Assembly (NCBI RefSeq): GCF_029227915.1
Contig: NC_079880.1
Coordinates: forward strand, 21,762,501 to 21,826,500
Length of the DNA stretch: 64,000 nt
Source: Hydractinia symbiolongicarpus
Lineage: Eukaryota > Cnidaria > Hydrozoa > Anthoathecata > Hydractiniidae
Direction of reading: 5' to 3'
The position numbers were made by a program, and so were the translations under genes. Shown here piece after piece: positions 27,055-59,559 of the stretch; the stretch's first letter is position 1; the number at the start of each line of letters is the position of its first letter. Below the pieces are notes generated by a model that saw only the letters and a program-made list of their open reading frames with translations, had not been told where the DNA came from and did not search any database.

Positions 27055-27290
27055 TCGGCCCGGCCCCCCGAATATCCTCTGACCTGTTCTTCCAAAATCC
27101 TACGATAAACAAGCAGCACGCGAAAAAAGAAAAACAGATAAGATAAGTTTTATATTGACTTTTATCTTGGATTTCTGCCCCACAGTTCACTGTGGTTTAT
27201 TTTTTGTAGATTTCTGATATCATCATTTATTTGCAACTCATTGTATTTTGAAAGTTTTGACAGTTTTAGTCCCTGTATACAGCTGAAAGC

Positions 27291-28430
27291 ATGGCTGAAA
27301 ATTCAAATGCAAATGATACTACAGTTACTTCTCCTAATACAACAAATGTCGAAGGCACAGACAACGATATGAGACAAGCAATTATTGCAGATGTACTCAG
27401 TGCAATAAGAAAAGAGTTCTCTCCTTTACTGCATGGACAAAGGAGGAGACCACTGCCTCCATCTGACGATTCCCTGTCTGTCCATGCTGACAAATACCGT
27501 CTTGTTGATGACGAGGATAATATACCAGGAGATACTTCTTCTGAGCATGATAATGACAACAATGATGAAAATAACTTACCAAGGCATTCCCTTGAGAACA
27601 CTATCCCTGGAGATAATATGTCAGATTTATTTACTCCAAATAAACATGGTGGCAAAAGCTACCGTGATTTGAATGTTGCAGAAGACATCCTCTTACAAGT
27701 GGATAATGAAATGCCACAATCATTAGACCTTGGTGAAAAAATCAAAGAAAATGTTGCCACTAGAGTTACGTCTCATTTCCTGGAAAAATGTCTTATTCCA
27801 GAGGTAAAAAAGAAGATAGGGAAAAGGCACTTGCTGCCTGAAAACGGTACTAAAATGGCTGTGCCAAAGATGAACAAATGCATTTTCAATCTCAAAAGTT
27901 TTTCAGAATTTATAAAACGTAATGAGAGAAATTTGTACAACACACAGCAAACACTGTTGAGTGCAACATCAGCCATTATAGAGGTGGTTGAAAAAGTTTT
28001 ACAGTCTGATGAAGGAAAAAAGCCCTTGAATTCGAAGGATGTTGTCATGAATTGTCTTGATGCAATAACATTACTTGGGTCAGTCAATACAGACCTAAAT
28101 AATAAAAGAAAACAAAATGTTCGCACCTCTTTGAACCCTCAATACAGGGATCTATGTAACCCGAGTAGACCATGCAATGAATTTCTGCTTGGGGATGATT
28201 TACAAAAGGGTATGAGAGAAGCCCAGGAAGCCTCAAAGCTTGCCTTGTCCTCATCCAGTACATATAGCTACAACAATAGCAGGAAATATCAATCATATCC
28301 TCATGTTGGAAGGTTTAGTAAAATCCCTAGCTCAACGACAACATTCAGGAAAGATATCCAGAATTTTTTAGAGAAGGGCAAGAAACCACAACAAAGTCAT
28401 CGGAAGCCCTTCAACAGAAGCAGGAAATAA
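27291..28430 (+). CDS. gag: DIRS gag-like ORF1 protein (379 aa)
   Basis: An intact frame begins 237 nt inside the left repeat. An acidic low-complexity N-terminus (about residues 50-115) is followed by a helical region and the motif NPQYRDLCNPSRPCNEFLLG with GDDLQKGMREAQEASK, the pattern seen near the end of DIRS-family ORF1 proteins (LFGDDL...I...). A basic, Ser-rich tail ends FNRSRK. It presumably packages element RNA. Its 3' end overlaps the start of the RT frame in another frame, as is usual for DIRS. No damage is seen. Confidence 0.8.
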   Translation: MAENSNANDTTVTSPNTTNVEGTDNDMRQAIIADVLSAIRKEFSPLLHGQRRRPLPPSDDSLSVHADKYRLVDDEDNIPGDTSSEHDNDNNDENNLPRHSLENTIPGDNMSDLFTPNKHGGKSYRDLNVAEDILLQVDNEMPQSLDLGEKIKENVATRVTSHFLEKCLIPEVKKKIGKRHLLPENGTKMAVPKMNKCIFNLKSFSEFIKRNERNLYNTQQTLLSATSAIIEVVEKVLQSDEGKKPLNSKDVVMNCLDAITLLGSVNTDLNNKRKQNVRTSLNPQYRDLCNPSRPCNEFLLGDDLQKGMREAQEASKLALSSSSTYSYNNSRKYQSYPHVGRFSKIPSSTTTFRKDIQNFLEKGKKPQQSHRKPFNRSRK

Positions 28431-30359
28431 CTGCTGCCCTCAATGTAAGTACCTATATATCAAACCTTAAAACTAAGTTAGCTGAAAATGTTAAAAATTC
28501 TCAGGCAGGTGCTATTTCTAGATATTTGCCTGCATGGAAAGAATTGACATCAGACCATGAGGTGTTGTCAACCGTTTCTGGTCTAACAATAGAATTTGAG
28601 GAACGACCACAACCCGGTAATGCTGAAAGCATGAACTGTTCTTTCTCTGCTGATGAAAACGTATTTATCAAATCAGAGATGACCAGGTTACTTAAAAAAG
28701 GAGTAATCAAACAAAGTTATCATGTAGCTGGAGAGTTTATATCTCCTATTTTTTTCACTCCAAAGCCTGGTGGTTAATTCAGACTTATTTTGAATTTAAA
28801 AAAGCTTAATAGTTATATGCCATATATACATTTTAAAATGGACACAATTTCTTCAGTTTTGAAATTAGTTGCAAAAAACTGCTTTATGGAAAAAATTGAT
28901 ATCAAAGATGCTTACTACTCTGTTCATATAGATGACGAATATCAAAAATTCTTAAAGTTTTATTATGATGGTGTGTTATACCAGTTCACTTGTCTCCCTA
29001 ACGGTTTGTGTTCTGGACCACGAAAATTTACGAAGCTTCTTAAACCACCTCTTGCTGTCTTAAGATCATCCCAGTGCTTGGTTTCAGGTTATATTGATGA
29101 CCTTATTACCATGCACAAATCTGACAATGGCTGCTTTGTAAACATAAAGAGTATTGTATCTTTATTAGAAGAATTAGGATTTTCTGTACATCCTGATAAA
29201 TCACATTTTCTCCCCACTTAAACCTTAGAATACCTTGGTTCAATCATCGATTCAGTTAATATGAGAGTGTATTTAACTGACTCAAAAAAGAAAAGAACCA
29301 AGGAATATTGTCAAAAACTTCTGTCTGCTACTCACAAAGTTAGTCTAAGGGAAATTGTCCAGCTTCTTGGTATCTTCAGCTCTAGTTTTCATGCTGTGTT
29401 ATTTGGAAAACTTCATTATAGAGATTTAGAACGTCTGGAGATAGACTCATTAAGAAACAACTATGGTAATTTTGATTCATACACTACTTTGTCTGCAAAT
29501 GCAATAGCAGATATACAGTGGTGGTGTGACAATATTACCTCATCATACAGTCCTATCTCATTTGGTAACCCCACCATGACTATTTTCACTGATTCTTCTA
29601 AGCTTGGGTGGGGTGCAGTATGTTCTAACTCACAAACTGGTGGCTTATTCTCAGAAGTTGAGTCTGAGCAGCATATAAATGTATTAGAGCTGAAAGCTAT
29701 TCTTTTTGGACTCAGTTTTCAACACCCACATCAAAGTATTGTGTGATAATACAACAGCTGTACATTGCATACACAACATGGGTAGTTGTCGTTCTATTCC
29801 TTGTGACATTGCTGTCAAGCATATTTGGGATTGGGCCATTAGACATGACAATTGGCTTACTATCTCACACATTCCAGGGTTTCCTAATGTAGAAGCTGAT
29901 GCAGAATCTAGGAAGCATGAAATTAAAACAGAATGGAAATTGAGTGAAAAGATCTTTCTGGACATTGTTTCACACTTTCAATTCTTCCCTGATATTGATT
30001 TATTTGCCAGTAGAATCAATACTCAACTGGCTACATTTGTTTCATATAGACCAGACCCTTGTACTACACATGTAAATGCTTTCACTATTAATTGGCATGG
30101 TCAAAAAGTCTATTGCTTTCCGCCTTTCGCCTGTGTAGGTGCAGTTGTTCAAAAAGCAATTCAGGACAAAATTGAAGGCTTGATTGTTGTGCCAAATTGG
30201 CCAAACCAATTATGGTATCCATTACTTCTCCAGGTTTCTGTTACAAATCCTTATGTAATTTTACCTTCTAGGGAGCAGATATTTCTTCCAAATCAACCGT
30301 CGTTACTTCATCCGCTACACAAGAACCTGAAGCTTCTTGCAGTGTTGATTCGAACCTGA
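28430..30359 (+). pseudogene. pol: DIRS reverse transcriptase-RNase H-methyltransferase-like ORF, broken
   Basis: The order is: RT fingers (FIKSEMTRLLKKGVIKQ, ISPIFFTPKPGG); RT palm with IDIKDAYYSV and the catalytic box SGYIDDL; connection domain; RNase H (TIFTDSSKLGWGAVC, HINVLELKAI, CDNTTAVHCI); then the DIRS C-terminal region (DIDLFASRINTQL, FPPFACVGAVVQKA, VVPNWPNQLWYPLL) related to DAM-type methyltransferases. Damage: TAA at about 28775-28777 right after PKPGG, TAA at 29219-29221 after FLPT, and a one-base frameshift near 29720-29745 inside RNase H. All catalytic motifs remain. The frame can be followed back to about 28430, overlapping gag. Confidence 0.88.
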
Positions 30360-31314
30360 TTGTGCAATTTGATGTTTCTGACAAGGTAAAGTCTTTGCTT
30401 ATTAAATCATGGACTTCTGGAACAAGGAAGCAATATGCACCTTATATCAAGAAATGGCTTGAATATTGCAGCACCAAAACCTTGATCCAACCTCAGCTCC
30501 TACGGTTGCAGGTGCAGATTTTTTAGCTGAGTTATTTTACTCCACCAAGTTAGAATACTCTGCTTTGAATACAGCCAGATCTGCTCTATCATCTATACTC
30601 CAACCTGACCATGGGATAACGTTTGGCAACCAACCTATAATCAAACGTTTATTGCGTGACATTTTCAAGGAACGACCAACTCTTCCTCGATATACAATCA
30701 CTTTTGATGTGGATTTCGTGTTGAGGTACCTTGACTCTTTGCCACCACCAGAAGAGTTATCTTTACAATTATTAACGCAACGTTTAGCTGTCTTGATGTG
30801 TGTTCTTAGTGGTCAACGATCACAGACACTCAGTGTTTTATCTTTAGATAGTTTGCATCAGGAAAATGAAAAATGTGTTTTCTTTATTCACAGTTTACTT
30901 AAACAAAGTAGACCGACAAATCACCAGAAACCATTGGAATTTTTTGCATATCCCACTAACAGGAAAGTCTGTGTTGTGCAAAACCTTACAGAATACCTTG
31001 CTAGAACTAATGGTCTACGCAACAATGAGAAAAGGCTTTTCATAAGTTATGTTTCACCCCACAAAGCTGTAACATCTGCAACTATTGCTAGGTGGACCTG
31101 TAAAATGTTGCAAGCTGCAGGGCTGGACACAAATGTTTTTAAGGCACACTCAACTCGTGCTGCTTCTACATCAAAATCAAAACAAACTGGTTTGTCTCTT
31201 TTAGATATTGGAAAAGCGGCTGGTTGGTCCAATGGAAGCACTTTTGCAAGGTTTTACAATAAGCCTGTTACGACCAATTTTGGACAGCATATTTTGATGG
31301 AATCCAACATTTGA
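30250..31314 (+). pseudogene. DIRS tyrosine recombinase, one frameshift
   Basis: The recombinase integrates the circular cDNA in DIRS elements. The N-terminal core-binding part (SGTRKQYAPYIKKWLEYC) is in one frame, overlapping the end of pol. From about 30470 the reading continues in another frame (DFLAELFYSTKLEYSALN onward). The shift lies in a CCAAAACC tract, so a one-base deletion is likely. The catalytic domain keeps the R-H-R-Y set: SGQRSQT, AHSTRAA, and the tyrosine in FARFYNK after GWSNGSTF. The stop is at 31312-31314. Confidence 0.85.
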
Positions 31315-43254: not shown

Positions 43255-44433
43255 TTCTAAAAAGAAAACATATGACTCGTGTCTGTTAATAAGGCGGTCA
43301 TCACAGAAAGTTACTGCTCTATCGTTGCAATGTATCCACCTGTGTACCATTTGGTCGAAGGCTATGGTTGTGTAGTGACCATTGTTTAGCCGCAATGGTT
43401 GATAATAGCCCTTAATTGAAAATTTTTACGAAATTTCACTTCTCCATCTACGGTTAAAGGTATGGAAAGGGTACCAGGGTAAGCAGTAATACGAGAGGCA
43501 ATTTTTGACACAAGGCCGTTGGCGCTGGCAAAACGTTTTAGCTGTAAAATGAGATGGGAACCACACGACACTACTTCTTTTTCAACTAGAGTAGGCATTA
43601 ATGTCTGACAACTCCTCGCTTTCGAAGAAATTATCTAAGGAAGATTGTAACATAGGGTGCACAGAAAGTTGGATGCATGGTGATATAACTTCTGAGGAGC
43701 TGGTAATATGACATGAATTGCAAGTGGTTGATGTCTTGATGCCAATACTAAAAAGACTTCCAAGAAATAGAAAGTCTAATGACAGACCAGGTAGGAGATA
43801 TTCAAGAACCACGGGGACGTCGTGCTGAGCAAAGATATTAAATGCACTTCCCTTCGCAGCTGAGATATGATGTTTCATAGCACGCAAAAAAAGGGAGGGA
43901 TCAACTGGACTTCTAGAAACAGCCAAACTTTGAAGAACACCTACAAATGCTTCGCCTAGCTTTGAGGTTGTTTTGCTGACAGAAATGGCTTCTTTAACTT
44001 TTGGAAGGTTATAAAAACATTGTAAGATGGAGTTTGCATAACATGTGTTTCCCAAGTTTTTTAGACCGCTATTCCTAAAATCAGGGTTAGATGGCAATGC
44101 GACTGTTGTTTTGGAAGACCTTGTAGCAAGTTTTTCGGGAAGTAGACGCAAAACAGAATCGTGGCGAAATGTAAACCGACCCTGTGTAAGAGCAGTTTTG
44201 CAGCCACCTAAGACGTGGGCTGTGGTGCGCACTTGCTTACCGCATAAGAAACAGGAGGTTTCAGTGCACAAAAGCCACCTTTTCAAATTACTTGGTGATG
44301 GGAGAACATCGTAGGTAGCGCCTAAACAAAAAGCAAGCAAGTTTGGGGGCATGCCCAGCAAGAAATTCCAGGAGAGATCGTTTTTATTGTAATTCTCCCA
44401 TCTGGTCCAGTACCCTTGCACTTGCAACTGCAT
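43255..44433 (-). pseudogene. LINE C-terminal CCHC region fused to ubiquitin-specific protease
   Basis: The reading opens with QVQGYWTRWENYNKNDLSW and a CX2CX8HX4C knuckle (CFLCGKQVRTTAHVLGGC), characteristic of LINEs with a restriction-like nuclease. It then passes directly into a USP fold. The Cys box is GLKNLGNTCYANSILQCFYN (catalytic Cys in NTCYAN); a middle region follows, and after a frame change near 43590 a LQLKRF-type segment. After another break comes a His box reading NGHYTTIAFDQ with a CND motif downstream. USPs remove ubiquitin from proteins. In this copy the nuclease domain between knuckle and USP has been deleted. The frame breaks and a stop near 43389 make it a pseudogene, but all USP landmarks are recognisable. 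Confidence 0.75.
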
Positions 44434-44530
44434 AATTTTTTAGATGACTTTCAGAATTGATGGGGCAGCAGGAAGACCGTCTAGATTCGTCAAGGGAACG
44501 TCATAGAACTTATCCTGAACAGCCAAAGAT

Positions 44531-52679: not shown

Positions 52680-52748
52680 GCCCTGCTGGTCTAATGGCTA
52701 TCACACTCATGCAAATGAGAGATCCAGGTTCAAATCCTGGACAGGGCT
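52680..52748 (+). tRNA. tRNA-like sequence (pseudogene or SINE head)
   Basis: An acceptor-like stem GCCCTG/CAGGGC closes a 68-69-nt unit with a perfect T arm (CCAGG-TTCAAAT-CCTGG), an exact B box and a good A box (TGGTCTAATGG). The anticodon arm is about 3 nt too short: the best fold is CTCAT-GCAA-ATGAG with a 4-nt loop, so no anticodon can be read. Probably a tRNA-derived pseudogene or SINE head rather than a working tRNA. Confidence 0.5.
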
Positions 52749-53943: not shown

Positions 53944-53947
53944 TTCT
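53944..53947 (+). repeat. candidate 4-bp target-site duplication (left)
   Basis: TTCT directly precedes CACGGT. The same TTCT directly follows ACCGTG at 59226-59229. Confidence 0.6.
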
Positions 53948-53987
53948 CACGGTAATCCACGGAGGGAAAAAAAGTGTGCGCATGCGC
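53948..53987 (+). repeat. left terminal inverted repeat of RAG1-like element
   Basis: CACGGTA heptamer-like start, 10-bp spacer, then GGAAAAAAA and the GCGCATGCGC palindrome. The inner 23 bp are an exact inverted match to 59176-59198. Confidence 0.72.
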
Positions 53988-54527
53988 CAGCTCGCGGGCA
54001 ATTTTTTTCTCCGCGTGGTCAATTCATGATGGCGGCGACGAACTTAAGGGTTTTATTGTGCCAAAAAAACTCTTTTTTAAGCCTCTGCGATAGAGATCTC
54101 TGTCAGAATACATTTTATTTTAGTAGGGTAGGCCCTCGACCATTTACAAAATCAAAATTGATTTGTTCGATCGCATGCTTTCTTCTTGCATAGCAGCCAA
54201 CATATGAGGGTGTGTTTTGACTATATGGAATTGGGTGCTAATTAAAGAAGACGATTTCTCCTTCTGTACGCAAAGTTATGCTTCAAAAATTACCTTTTCT
54301 TAAAGGGGATTGATTGTTGGACCAGACTGCATTTAAGGTTTGTAGCTGCCACTTTTTTTGTAACGAGAATCGACTTTTAAATTTGAACTTTCTGAGACGT
54401 CAAAAATGGTACCATTTTTTCATTAATTAATGATAATGGAAACTGCCTTTATACAACAGTACCTTTAAATTAGCACTATATAGACTATATATAAACAGTA
54501 TAGATTTACACAACAACATCACTTTTA

Positions 54528-57500
54528 TTATTCCTCATGTTTCCTCTTTCTTATTATAGGACGTAGTTTCTGGGCATTGGGGTTAATCCTTGTGAGGTGC
54601 TCTCGAAGCATGGCCTCGACACGTCTGCTTGCTGGCTTCATGTGTTGGTATGTGCTCATTAACTTGTTAAACATAGGGTGTATGCTCTCAGCACCCTGCT
54701 CACCATAAAATCCAAAGCCAGTACCCCACTTTCTCATAAAATCTACGGCATGGTCCTCTAGCATGTGTAGCTTTGGCGTTATCGTAACATCTGGCCAATT
54801 AGTACGCAGGAAAGCCATCAGTTTGTCAATAGATTGCTCTATACATAAATTTTAAAAAATTAGCTCTTTGATGCAGTGATGTGACAAACAGTCAGAAAAA
54901 ATCAATAATTAACAGTACTAGCCAGTTATTGTTAAAAATATTTTTAACTGTACCTAATTCAGAAATTAACTGTGGGCCAAAATCGTTTCTACTGTTTATC
55001 AAATTGTGACATTTTGCGTAACAGGAGAACAGTTGCTTGTACTTTCTGCAAACTTCAACAGACTCCATGTGAATTTCATTCCCCTGATGTCCCATGTCAT
55101 ACACTAGCTTTGGGATGGAATTGCATATCTGTATTATGTTACCATCCTACAAAAATATAAGTTGATATATGTTGAACATATTCCTTTTTTATTGTCATAA
55201 GCATTTTTTTATTATAGATCATGTTTTGTTGTGTAGCTGGCAATAAACAAGCATCTAACAGGTATATGTACGTTATCTCTACTTTATAGAAAAAACTTGA
55301 TTTCTTTGACTTGCGACATTCAAAGTATATACCTTCAACATTTTATGGACATGGTTGCCAACAAAACTTTTTCCATGGTAGGCTTGTCGTTCAACGTTTA
55401 ATTTTTTTAATATCTCGTCAAGTTTTTCAACACATGGCCCACTTGCCTGCATTAGATTGTGTTCTTTTCGTAGTCCTTCTGCTTCAGATGTCTAATATAA
55501 AAAATACAGAAAAATAGTCATCAAGAGTTACTGACACAACTTATTGCACAGAAGGATATGCACATTATAAAGGTCTCTGAATGCTTTGACTTGCATTAAA
55601 TTGTGTACTCACTTTTTCAGTCATTTTTCTTTGTAGAAAGTCAATGCGTGGTTCATAAATATCTTTAATATGCTGCTCGGTTTCAGGTTTTTTCAGGATA
55701 TTGAGTGCAATTGCTTCGTGAATAAGGCCAATTTTTTCTTCACAATCTTTCGCAGTTTTCTCACAATCCTTGATCTTATTGCAAATGGCAATAGAGTCGT
55801 TAAAGCTTAAAATCTTGTTCTTGCTTTTCGAAACAGCAGTACTGGCAGCTAATTTGATGTCGAGATTCATACATTCTGATTCCAACATGTTGAAAAATTT
55901 CAGAAATGTACCAAGGGAAATATGTAAGGCAGGCAATGCTATCTAAAAATTAAAATGCACATTAGAAAGGGTAACTAAATGTATATATCAGGTTTTCAGC
56001 CTTATAAATTGATCAACTAAAATGTACCTGATCAATAGAAACATTGAACAATCTCTTGCATATAACCTTGTTAAACTCCTTTGCCCTCTTAATATCGCCA
56101 CCAGCCTCATTAAATCTCTGGAGGTCATTAGATAATGATTCCAATGTACGCGGTGCTATACTAAATCTTTCTTGTCGAGGAATTTTCATTTCTTGTGATG
56201 TTATATGGCAAAACAAGCAGTTATGTCTTCCTGTATAATAATAAGTATCAGTAACTTTCACAGAAATAAATCTCCACACATGACAAATTTGCAGAGATTG
56301 GTATTAAAATAGCAGTCATTGTTTAAAATAAGATGAAAGAGTAAAAACAAAAATTAGTCACAAAAAATATAGAAATAAGAATAAATTAGTTGCATACCAT
56401 TTGCTCCTGTGATTCCATATATAGATTCCATATATTCCATATATATATTCCATAATCGCCACTAATAAATACACGTACTTTTCTTCCCCTGATAATTAAA
56501 TAATCATTTGTTAAAACTTTTAGCAGACATGTACTTAACTTTTTAGGAAAACATACCTCCACTCCATCAATTGCAGATCATCAACTTGTGCGGTAAATCT
56601 TGATAACGCTAGCACTAAATTTGGTCGATAATCCTTTGCTTCAAACATGGAAAATACCACAGTGTTGTCCTTGCTATTTGGTTTTGCTGTGTTGCATAGC
56701 TGGTAGTTCATTTTGAATGATTTGCCACCATGGTCCCCACCCAACTTGATGTGGATTTCATTTTTTAAAAAGGGATGATCAACCATTAAATCGTTACTGT
56801 GAAAATAGAGAGTAATAAATGATATATGTAGATATTATTTCTGTCTTTTATACAGATATTATGTATATTTTACACATGTGTAGTCTTATGTAGTTTGTGT
56901 TGTACTTTGTATGTTACTTACTCCTTCAGAGTGTCAAGATGGTTGAAAATTTGATAAGGAAGTGACTTTAGGTACCCCCATGGAGCTGCTTGAATAACAT
57001 ACGAGCCCTTTACTTCTTTGTTGGGAAAAGTAAATGGGACCTCTTCAACCACCAAATCTTCAGTGCACCATGTTTTAGCAATTGTTCTTTGCTGATTAAA
57101 TGCTGCAGGCATGACATTAAAAGTTTTCAGCCATCTATTATATAATTTTATTATTTAAATACTGCAGTATGACAATTTATACACACTAATTAGCCAGAAA
57201 ATTTGGTGCTGTGTCAGGGATCAGTTGTGCTTATTCTGTTTTTAAATATAATGTTTTTGTATTCAGTAGGAATTTCTAATTTTGTGTACTTTTGTACTTA
57301 ATTTTATATTCTAAGTGTATAGCCTCACATACCTGGCCATTGTTTTCAGCTTTTCCCAAGGGATCCCCATGTCTACCTTCATTGCAACCAGCGATTCGGC
57401 GGTAATCTCAGCATTTGGAATGTTTGCCTGTTTAATTATGTTTTTTCTTTGTTGCACATCAAATCCCTGCAATAGTTTGCCTGTTTGTTTTGCAAGTGCA

Positions 57501-58760
57501 TCCACAGAGTTGCCTGATGTAGTTTGTAGTTGTTGTTTTATAAACTTTGTCCTGTTTGAGATGGTCTTTGAGCATACATCAGTACTGCTTTTATTTGACT
57601 TCGGTGTGGGAGTCATGACTAATGGCTGAAAAATCATCAATCTTACAGTAATATTGACAGAAAATTCTTTTATTGCTTAGGTGCAAAATACACACGTTTT
57701 TATGTAAGAAACATGCTTTTGGGTTATGCTGGATGTTTCTTAACTTTTTGAGAATGCTTTTCAGCATAGCATGTTCTTAAAACCTAGTTTCTTATAATAA
57801 AAAGTTAATTGAGTATTTTGTTATTTAACTCACCCTGCCGCATGTCTTGAATAAAATACTACGATTGGGAAGAGTTGACTGCTCCATTTTTGTCCGAATT
57901 ACATGCAAAACTGCATCATTAATATCTGACGTGACTTCACTTTTCGTGTCAATGTTCATTACTTCGGAAAGCATTTTCTCATTTTTTTGCGGGCCAGTAC
58001 AACAAGACAAGTGTTTAACCTTTCTTATTTCTTCTGACACCCTGAATGGAATTTTGCACTTACTGCATTCGGTTGTCAGGTTTTCACTCAGCCGTTGAAA
58101 TTTAATCGAGGGGTGAACATTTTCAAATCTTGCAGAGATTCTACACTCCGGACATTTAAAATCATTCTCCTTTACACCCTCGACCCAACTTACAAAGCAT
58201 TTGTAGCAAAATGTGTGTTCGCAGGGAACAACGTTCAAAGGTCTTCTCAATATGTTACGGCACAGACCACACGTGAACAGTTCAATAGATGGGTTAAGTT
58301 TAAAGTCCTCAATATTATACTGCTGTGGAATTATATCATCAGGCGTTTTATTATCTATCTCTTCAGATATTTTTTTTGTCCACACTGGATTGTTCAAAGA
58401 TGGTTTGCCTGACTTGTTTTTTTGTGGCCTGGAACGTCCTTGTGCTTTTTTAAGGCCTAAGCTACACGTGTCACAATGTTCTGTGCCCCCTTCTTTGTGT
58501 GGTTTCCACGTTTTTATTTTTATTGAAGATGTAGTTCCCCTTTTTTCAACATTTTTCATTAAGGAGTAGCATCTGAGGCAAAATTTTGGTGGGTGTACAT
58601 CTTCTATATCTCTAGTTACATCCTGGTAGAAACATTTTTCTATTCGTGAGGCAAACTTTAGGACTGGAAATTTGTTTCTTTCGACCTTTCCTGTATGTTC
58701 TCCACATACTCGACATAACTTGGACAGTAAAACGTTATGTTTGTTTTGGTCGTCAGCCAT
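54528..58760 (-). CDS. RAG1L: RAG1-like transposase, 10 exons, about 986 aa (one exon out of frame)
   Basis: Exons: 58760-57834, 57625-57333, 57134-56922, 56796-56557, 56488-56398, 56230-56028, 55942-55613, 55491-55333, 55146-54954, 54838-54528; introns of 68-208 bp, all GT-AG. N-terminus: C16/C19 with C61/C64 (LCRVCGE, KFCLRCYS), WKPH...HCDTC (residues 85-99), C3HC4 RING (C164, C167, C180, H182, C185, C188, C203, C206), then a C232/C235/H250/C253 finger, the order of the RAG1 zinc and RING region. Core: IKLGGDHGG (D499, cf. RAG1 D600), ISGDY (D569, cf. D708), CLFC (C593/C596, cf. C727/C730), HMLEDH (H908/H913, cf. H937/H942) and GEQGAESIH (E934, cf. E962). Residue numbers after 570 are within one or two. 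RAG1 family proteins cut and join DNA at CAC-ended signals in the nucleus. Exon 5 is 91 nt where 89 or 92 is needed. Other phases all agree. Confidence 0.88.
56398..56488 (-). CDS. RAG1-like exon 5 with frame-breaking repeat expansion
   Basis: The exon opens RGRKVRVFISGDY in frame. It then enters four near-copies of ATATATGGAAT, after which the frame leading to YGITGAN and the next exon (GRHNCLFC) is one base out. It lies between the second catalytic Asp and the CxxC zinc pair, so this copy would lose its core unless the reading is an assembly or slippage error. Confidence 0.7.
57834..58760 (-). CDS. RAG1-like exon 1: N-terminal zinc region and RING
   Basis: 309 codons from ATG 58760 to a consensus donor (GTGAGT at 57833). 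It contains the whole RAG1 N-terminal zinc array and RING (ubiquitin ligase type). The start is the first ATG of the frame (MADDQNKHN). Encoding this in one exon and the RNase H-like core in nine short exons is notable. Confidence 0.88.
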
Positions 58761-59185
58761 TTTTATTTTCTAATCGAAGCTGGTTTGTGTGCTTCTCAAA
58801 AATTTAAATTTATGTTCTTTAACAAAGTGGCAGCTACTGTGTATTACCACAGGAGTCTAGTTTAAGGGTTTATCTAACTTTGTAAAATTATGTTTTTGGC
58901 AAATCTTGCGTTAAAAAGTCAGAGAGAGGTGATCAAAACCCTCAAATTTGTGAAGTGGCGCTCTCGACTTTAATCGGCTATCCTGTTTGTTTATAAAATG
59001 CTAGGCAGCAAGTACGAAAATAATTAGCATCCTTGGTCATCCTTTCTCAAATTAAGTCGGAAAAAGTAGTGAATGTTTCCTTATTTTGGTAATAAATACA
59101 GTATTTAGTGGGTTAGGTCAATGTTGATGACGTCATAATTTTAGTCGGAGAAATTTATTTTGCTTAAGATTTTTAGCGCATGCGC

Positions 59186-59225
59186 ACACTTTTTTTCCGC
59201 AAAATCGCGGTTTTGAACGACCGTG
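59186..59225 (-). repeat. right terminal inverted repeat of RAG1-like element
   Basis: Read inward on the minus strand: CACGGTC, 20-bp spacer, GGAAAAAAA (59198-59190) and on into the GCGCATGCGC palindrome (to 59176). The spacer is twice the length of the left one. Confidence 0.7.
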
Positions 59226-59559
59226 TTCTGTGTATGTTTTTTTTTTCTCAGCCACGAAGCGTTTGGACGTATGTTCCGAGTTGGCTGATTAAGTTAAAAA
59301 CACAATGGTGATTTTTTTTCAATCTGATTTTTATTTTTATTTATTTTTATTATCTACTTTTAATTTTTATTATCTACTTTTAATTTTTAATACTACATGA
59401 CATACTGCAAAAAAAATATATGTGAAAATGTATAGGTAGGGAAGGTATAGAAGTATTCAATACACTCTTTTAAGAGGTTAAGTATGTTTTTATATAAATT
59501 CTCAAAGTTTGAAACTCACCAGAATGAATATCATGCATTTTCATTAAATGCGGTGCATC

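What the first reader, a model, noticed from the sequence alone, without database searches (positions are those of the whole stretch)
53948..59225. Complete RAG1-like transposon in a probable cnidarian genome
One gene spliced from ten GT-AG exons reads through the RAG1 N-terminal zinc region and RING and the whole RAG1 core: three acidic catalytic positions (D499, D569, E934) and both zinc pairs (C593/C596 and H908/H913) in RAG1 order and comparable spacing, inside defined termini. Transib elements lack the RAG1 N-terminus. Having N-terminus plus core in one mobile unit outside deuterostomes bears directly on how RAG1 was assembled. RAG1-like sequences in invertebrates are known; whether this lineage is described cannot be decided here.
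Basis: partly seen in the sequence, partly recalled or inferred. Interest (0 to 1): 0.95.

Follow-up and report, generated by a model that had tools for sequence, protein, structure and literature searches.

The report
Broken Chapaev transposon with RAG1-like parts
This is an inactive copy of a known kind of animal jumping gene (a Chapaev transposon) whose enzyme carries the same front-end zinc domains as RAG1, the enzyme that shuffles antibody genes, and whose two ends are spaced unequally by about one turn of the DNA helix, somewhat like the signals that RAG1 cuts.

Summary
The feature is real. Window 53948-59225 is a 5,278-bp DNA transposon with CACGGT...ACCGTG ends and a 4-bp target duplication, holding one spliced minus-strand gene. 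Two corrections. First, with GT-AG introns it does not read through: exon 5 is out of phase (0 of 1,615 routes tested stay open). Second, it is not a RAG1/RAGL or Transib element: the core misses the RAG1 Pfam model, the duplication is 4 bp rather than 5, and no RAG2L was seen. It fits Chapaev, whose Chapa-RING-core architecture was in print by 2015. The core is distantly homologous to RAG1 by profile comparison. One feature I found in no paper of the held library: in 6 of 6 Chapaev families examined here (33-47% protein identity) the ends are bipartite and unequal, the inner block starting at base 18 downstream of the gene and base 28 or 29 upstream, an offset close to that of RAG's 12/23 signals (family A is the weakest case).

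The parts
53948..59225 (-). whole element, 5,278 bp, gene on the minus strand
   Evidence: ends and TSD; genome has 83 ends of this type
53944..53947 (.). target site duplication TTCT, left
59226..59229 (.). target site duplication TTCT, right
53948..53987 (+). 3' end (downstream of the gene), short type: outer block bases 1-10, inner block GGAAAAAAAGTGTGCGCATGCGC at bases 18-40 (53965-53987)
59176..59225 (-). 5' end (upstream of the gene), long type: outer block bases 1-10, same inner block at bases 28-50 (59198-59176)
57834..58760 (-). exon 1, N-terminal zinc region and RING
58389..58643 (-). RAG1 N-terminal zinc region (Pfam RAG1_imp_bd, aa 40-124; taken to be the 'Chapa' domain of Kapitonov and Koonin)
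   Evidence: E 7.4e-10; profile of 15 relatives vs mouse RAG1 102-463, E 4e-21
58143..58271 (-). RING finger (PF00097, aa 164-206)
   Evidence: E 2.6e-8
57333..57625 (-). exon 2
56922..57134 (-). exon 3
56557..56796 (-). exon 4, GGDHGG with first catalytic D (D499)
   Evidence: aligned to the RAG1 D600 region
56398..56488 (-). exon 5, 91 nt, holds GDY (second catalytic D, D569) and is out of phase: frameshift
   Evidence: 77 nt in the C13 copy
56028..56230 (-). exon 6, CLFC zinc pair (C593/C596)
55613..55942 (-). exon 7
55333..55491 (-). exon 8
54954..55146 (-). exon 9
54528..54838 (-). exon 10 with H908/H913 and the last catalytic acid E934 (codon 54689-54687)

Best explanation
A degenerate copy of a RING-bearing Chapaev cut-and-paste DNA transposon in a large, perhaps hydrozoan, genome. 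The transposase (when intact) would bind two unequal bipartite ends, cut at the CAC terminus with a DDE/RNase H-like core held together by the C(2)C/H(4)H zinc site, and insert with a 4-bp staggered cut. SHOWN by sequence: ends, TSD length, exon structure, domains, motif order, frame break, end geometry in six families. INFERRED: RNase H fold, catalysis, the inner block as a binding site, and that the roughly one-turn offset makes the enzyme pair one 5' end with one 3' end, as the 12/23 rule does for RAG.
For: 4-bp TSD in 26 of 30 fetched W-type elements, the other 4 being copies of one duplicated locus with 5 bp; the 30 represent 23 distinct flank pairs. 8 of 9 copies of other families also show 4 bp. 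Chapaev hallmarks are 3-4 bp TSD, CAC/GTG ends, C(2)C and H(4)H (PMC4079192, passages). DUF1280 (PF06918) matches the window, P0001, P0011 and P0013 and is precomputed in 13 of 15 relatives; the 10 named relatives are from Hydra, Asterias and Branchiostoma. No PF12940 match at E<=1 for the window and 3 of 3 relatives scanned, while 2 of 2 RAG1-like controls hit. Chapa plus RING in Chapaevs is in print. Further transposase matches in the same genome: 70 rows from 47 scored of 677 candidates.
Against: No Repbase Chapaev sequence was available, so the name rests on published hallmarks rather than a direct match. One duplicated W-type locus has a 5-bp repeat and one family A copy has no 4-bp repeat. 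RAG1_imp_bd is absent from the list for P0011 and below cut-off in P0013, so not all relatives show it. Core homology to RAG1 is weak (probability 83%, 15% identity) and a block-shuffled control reached 42.3 against 55.1. No fold was predicted.
Confidence: 0.92

Rival explanations
1. A true RAG1L/RAGL transposon (ProtoRAG kind), with the RAG1 core, 5-bp duplications and RAG2L, that has lost RAG2L.
For: The N-terminal region and RING match RAG1 at E 4e-21 as a profile; RAGL pairs are known in cnidarians (PMC7204232, passages).
Against: PF12940 not matched; 4-bp TSD; no other frame over 124 aa in the element, and 8 of the other frames scanned with Pfam gave no kelch or PHD; the protein is 22-46% identical to its 15 relatives by BLASTP but its core is 15% identical to RAG1 in profile alignment.
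Confidence: 0.03
2. A chimera or assembly artefact: a RAG1-like N-terminus next to an unrelated transposase.
For: Exon 5 is out of phase here.
Against: Relatives with RAG1-type N-terminus or RING and the PF06918 region in one protein come from other sources (P0001, P0004, P0011); a 97.4% copy lies on another contig; the introns are all GT-AG.
Confidence: 0.02
3. A domesticated host gene derived from a Chapaev.
For: Long spliced gene with conserved motifs.
Against: Both ends and the TSD are present, the frame is broken at exon 5, and a second broken copy exists.
Confidence: 0.03
4. The unequal ends are a neutral relic copied by descent, with no role in pairing.
For: The 30 of 30 paired W-type elements derive from few sources, so copies are not independent; family A's inner block is irregular; six families of one genome share ancestry.
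Against: Six families at 33-47% protein identity keep base 18 against base 28 or 29, while the spacer between blocks is less conserved (3' ends 0.40 vs 0.66 in both blocks; 5' ends 0.35 vs 0.72 and 0.58).
Confidence: 0.35

Closest known systems
Chapaev transposons with Chapa and RING (Kapitonov and Koonin 2015, PMC4411706, passages; it cites Kapitonov and Jurka 2007, not seen)
   Same: N-terminal zinc domain, RING, DDE core; CAC/GTG ends, 3-4 bp TSD, C(2)C and H(4)H (PMC4079192, passages); found in sea anemone and lancelet
   Different: This copy is broken; unequal end spacing of Chapaev is not mentioned in the passages I read
RAG1 of jawed vertebrates
   Same: N-terminal zinc region and RING homologous; core colinear; CAC-type bipartite sites with unequal spacers
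   Different: Core too distant for Pfam; 4-bp rather than 5-bp duplication; no RAG2; inner block at 18 and 28/29 rather than nonamer at 20 and 31; nonamer-binding domain homology not supported
RAGL transposons (ProtoRAG; AanRAGL)
   Same: bipartite unequal ends: ProtoRAG 27/31 (PMC8289069, passages), AanRAGL 4/13 (PMC9435367, passages)
   Different: 5-bp TSD, RAG2L, PF12940 core; offsets of 4 and 9 rather than 10-11
Transib
   Same: CAC ends, related core (recalled and PMC12730594, passages); Subgroup I has unequal ends
   Different: 5-bp TSD; no N-terminal region (PMC8355894, passages); most families have symmetric ends according to PMC8289069
N-RAG-TP of Aplysia
   Same: mobile RAG1-like N-terminus
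   Different: described as composed entirely of the N-terminal-like sequence (PMC8355894, passages); here it is joined to a core

Membership tests
Chapaev | 5'-CAC / GTG-3' termini | tested here: met
   window and six families; one family C copy has CAT at one end
Chapaev | 3-4 bp TSD | tested here: met
   26 of 30 W-type elements 4 bp, 4 of 30 (one duplicated locus) 5 bp; 8 of 9 other-family copies 4 bp, L061 not
Chapaev | DDE with C(2)C and H(4)H | tested here: met
   motif positions by sequence, the second D lying in the out-of-phase exon; fold not tested
Chapaev | Chapa domain, RING in two subgroups | tested here: met
   RAG1_imp_bd and RING by Pfam; that RAG1_imp_bd is the Chapa domain is inferred
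Chapaev | match to a reference Chapaev transposase | not testable with these tools
   no Repbase; PF06918 carries no Chapaev name
Chapaev3 | 3-bp TWA TSD | tested here: not met
   4-bp, varied
RAG1 / RAGL | RAG1 core (PF12940) | tested here: not met
   no match at E<=1 (filters drop most matches above 0.1); distant profile homology only
RAG1 / RAGL | 5-bp TSD | tested here: not met
RAG1 / RAGL | RAG2-like partner gene | tested here: not met
   no other frame over 124 aa in the element; 8 frames scanned with Pfam, no kelch or PHD; a finely split gene is not excluded
RAG1 / RAGL | N-terminal zinc region and RING | tested here: met
RAG1 / RAGL | nonamer-binding domain | tested here: inconclusive
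   hhalign of the region alone scored 11.7, P 0.32
Transib | 5-bp TSD | tested here: not met
Transib | no RAG1 N-terminus | tested here: not met
   N-terminus present

The most novel reading that the evidence does not exclude
Chapaev transposons obey a one-helical-turn pairing rule (one end with the inner block at base 18, the other at 28-29), and this rule is homologous to the RAG 12/23 rule. The common ancestor of Chapaev, Transib and RAG would then already have had both the Chapa-RING-core transposase and unequal signal ends, and V(D)J recombination inherited its 12/23 restriction from transposon end architecture.
Probability: 0.2. Interest if true: 0.85.

Novelty: new member of a known kind. 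Interest (0 to 1): 0.5.

Why it matters
The element itself adds one more example of an architecture already used to argue how RAG1 was put together. The end geometry may matter more. If unequal signals about one turn apart are the rule in Chapaev too, the origin of the 12/23 rule can be tested in living transposons outside the RAG/Transib lineage, in a genome where one Chapaev family has 12 equal-scoring open matches.

Tried and rejected
RAG1 Pfam search of the genome: no match, but the control genomes rang nowhere, so it shows little. The single window protein against solved structures had a TRIM5 RING as best hit (9e-7), just ahead of RAG1 (1.6e-6); only the profile put RAG1 clearly first. 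hhalign of the N-terminal part against my RAG1 alignment found only the RING stretch (score 42.8, 82 columns); most rows of that alignment lack the N-terminus. Nonamer-binding domain homology through the GG.RP motif: the alignment failed. Scan of viral contigs for relatives: 11 pattern hits, 0 confirmed. An exact 12/22 heptamer-nonamer reading (A-tract as nonamer) fits the W-type ends only; across families the safe statement is block start 18 vs 28/29, the start being set by the GGAA/CGAA/GGAC motif (the best ungapped stretch itself starts at 16-18 where it has that offset). Family A is less regular: offsets 4 and 10 score equally and 66 of 1,000 shuffles reach the score. Family E is a 99% copy of B and is not counted as independent. 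The genome-wide test of the pattern CACGN{24,44}GCGCATGCGC did not complete.
Full report
WHAT IS THERE. The window carries a 5,278-bp element at 53948-59225 with ends CACGGT...ACCGTG flanked by TTCT on both sides. On the minus strand one gene runs from an ATG at 58760 to a stop at 54528 in ten exons, all nine introns being GT-AG. For searches I used a 954-aa join that leaves out exon 5 and moves the exon 6 acceptor by four bases. Pfam gives RAG1_imp_bd (E 7e-10), RING (E 3e-8) and DUF1280/PF06918 (E 6e-13) and lists no RAG1 core up to E 1.

THE FRAME IS BROKEN. With exon 5 the GT-AG join is 2,960 nt, and its first stop is at codon 598 of 986. None of 1,615 GT-AG combinations around exons 4-6 gives an open protein with both GDY and HNCLFC. 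A 97.4% identical copy on contig C13 (L063) has a 77-nt exon 5 that is in phase and reads GDYEFLCSIYGITGANGRHNC, but it has two stops elsewhere, and its alignment to the window element begins about 460 bases in from the left end. So neither copy of this family that I found is whole.

RELATIVES. A search of 5.8 billion proteins gave 15 relatives at E<=0.001: 6 are named Hydra vulgaris, 2 Asterias amurensis, 2 Branchiostoma, 5 have no name. PF06918 is precomputed in 13 of 15. In the alignment of the 15 the G-D-Y motif and the CxxC pair are invariant. Three relatives scanned with Pfam show no PF12940 at E<=1, while a brittle star and a sea star RAG1-like protein hit it at 1.5e-137 and 5.1e-67. 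RAG1_imp_bd passes its cut-off in P0001, is below it in P0013 and is not listed for P0011. Against solved structures the profile of the 15 finds mouse RAG1 residues 102-463 at E 4e-21 and no core among the 60 rows shown (alignment); the single window protein finds a TRIM5 RING first and RAG1 second.

DISTANT CORE HOMOLOGY. Profile-profile alignment of the core (13 relatives plus the window) with a RAG1/RAG1L core alignment (12 proteins, rows under 30% of the length to be dropped by the script) gives score 55.1 over 471 colinear columns, aligning GGDHGG with the D600 region, the PNS motif, CxxC with C727/C730, and GEQGGE with the E962 region. Controls: 30 column shuffles reach at most 27.7, 30 shuffles of 30-column blocks at most 42.3, the reversed alignment 22.1. 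The reported probability is 83% and identity 15%. A nonamer-binding domain was not supported.

COPIES AND TARGET DUPLICATION. A pattern for the ends occurs 83 times in the 480.9-Mb genome against 0 for the reversed pattern. The distance between the outer CACGGT and the inner GTGTGCGCATGCGC is N20 in 40, N30 in 37, N29 in 4, N19 in 1, N31 in 1; all 30 of 30 convergent neighbouring pairs under 10 kb are N20 with N30. Of these 30 (L060 is the window element), 26 have a 4-bp duplication and 4, copies of one duplicated locus, have 5 bp; they represent 23 distinct flank pairs. The 29 others hold no transposase match and share only terminal stretches of 120-204 bp with the window element at 69-81% identity, so they are non-autonomous relatives.

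END GEOMETRY IN OTHER FAMILIES. A search with P0001 gave 70 matches from 47 scored of 677 candidates. I fetched loci for some of them, choosing matches with several copies or a long frame, and resolved both ends for each of the five extra families fetched: A, B (with E, a 99% copy), C, D, G. With the window family W that is six families at 33-47% pairwise transposase identity. Of nine copies outside W with both ends, 8 have a 4-bp duplication and L061 (family A) has none; one family C copy has CAT instead of CAC at one end. In 6 of 6 families the inner block, marked by its GGAA, CGAA or GGAC start, begins at base 18 of the end downstream of the gene and at base 28 (W, A, G) or 29 (B, C, D) of the end upstream. 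The best offset beats 1,000 of 1,000 shuffles in W, B, C, D, E and G; in A 66 of 1,000 reach the score and offsets 4 and 10 tie. Between families the blocks are more alike than the spacer: 3' ends 0.66 and 0.66 against 0.40, 5' ends 0.72 and 0.58 against 0.35. A rough tree groups W, A and G (with the sea star, lancelet and one unnamed protein) apart from B, C, D with support 0.998, which fits a one-base change in offset; it is unrooted, built on sequences projected onto W, and the nodes placing B and joining C with D are weak (0.31, 0.48).

WHAT IS KNOWN. Chapaev hallmarks are 3-4 bp duplications, CAC/GTG ends, C(2)C and H(4)H (PMC4079192, passages). [quoted passage not shown] RAGL, RAG and Transib insertions have 5-bp duplications (PMC7204232, passages). 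Unequal bipartite ends are known for ProtoRAG (27/31; PMC8289069, passages), AanRAGL (4/13) and Transib Subgroup I (PMC9435367, passages); PMC8289069 says most Transib families have symmetric ends. I found no paper on unequal Chapaev ends in searches, of an open-access library only and read from listings and passages; Kapitonov and Jurka 2005 was not held, and Repbase Reports were not looked for.

MECHANISM. Most likely: cut-and-paste by a DDE transposase, with the CAC end as cleavage site and the inner block as a second contact, and with the offset favouring pairing of unlike ends. Only the anatomy is shown; binding, cleavage and pairing are inferred from RAG, ProtoRAG and Transib. Against homology with the 12/23 rule stand the missing nonamer-binding domain match, the different offsets in ProtoRAG and AanRAGL, and the symmetric ends of most Transibs.

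VERDICT. Ordinary as a class, inactive as a copy, and a good lead for its ends. 

Noticed in passing
L001-L060, e.g. L040-L043 (contig C5, 11.70-11.72 Mb): A non-autonomous family (most copies 1.3-3.7 kb) with the same unequal ends; one copy with a 5-bp repeat (ACCTT) sits in a locus present four times in a row.
   Followed up: partly
G000 contigs, top rows: 12 places with the same score and an open 279-aa frame (family A; the aligned parts of L061 and L062 are 99.96-100% identical): a recently amplified Chapaev, possibly still active.
   Followed up: partly
53978-53987 and 59176-59185, and the other families: The inner block contains GCGCATGCGC or a close variant, which resembles the NRF1 binding site (recalled); ProtoRAG ends interact with a host factor, YY1 (PMC7481187, start of abstract in a listing only).
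   Followed up: no
27270-31314: Frames with a weak tyrosine-recombinase match (PF00589, E 6e-6, below the cut-off) next to frames that look reverse-transcriptase-like by eye: perhaps a DIRS-type retroelement.
   Followed up: partly
43582-44439: One stop-to-stop frame joins a weak reverse-transcriptase zinc match to a ubiquitin hydrolase domain (PF00443, E 2.5e-13).
   Followed up: partly
52680-52747: A stretch that looks like a tRNA-derived repeat by eye, though ARAGORN finds no tRNA in the window.
   Followed up: partly
L066, L067 and flanks: Family C copies lie inside arrays of a roughly 200-bp tandem repeat on two contigs.
   Followed up: no
L053: A 7.1-kb W-type element with a 540-aa frame that looks like a pogo-type transposase by eye: perhaps a nested insertion.
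   Followed up: no
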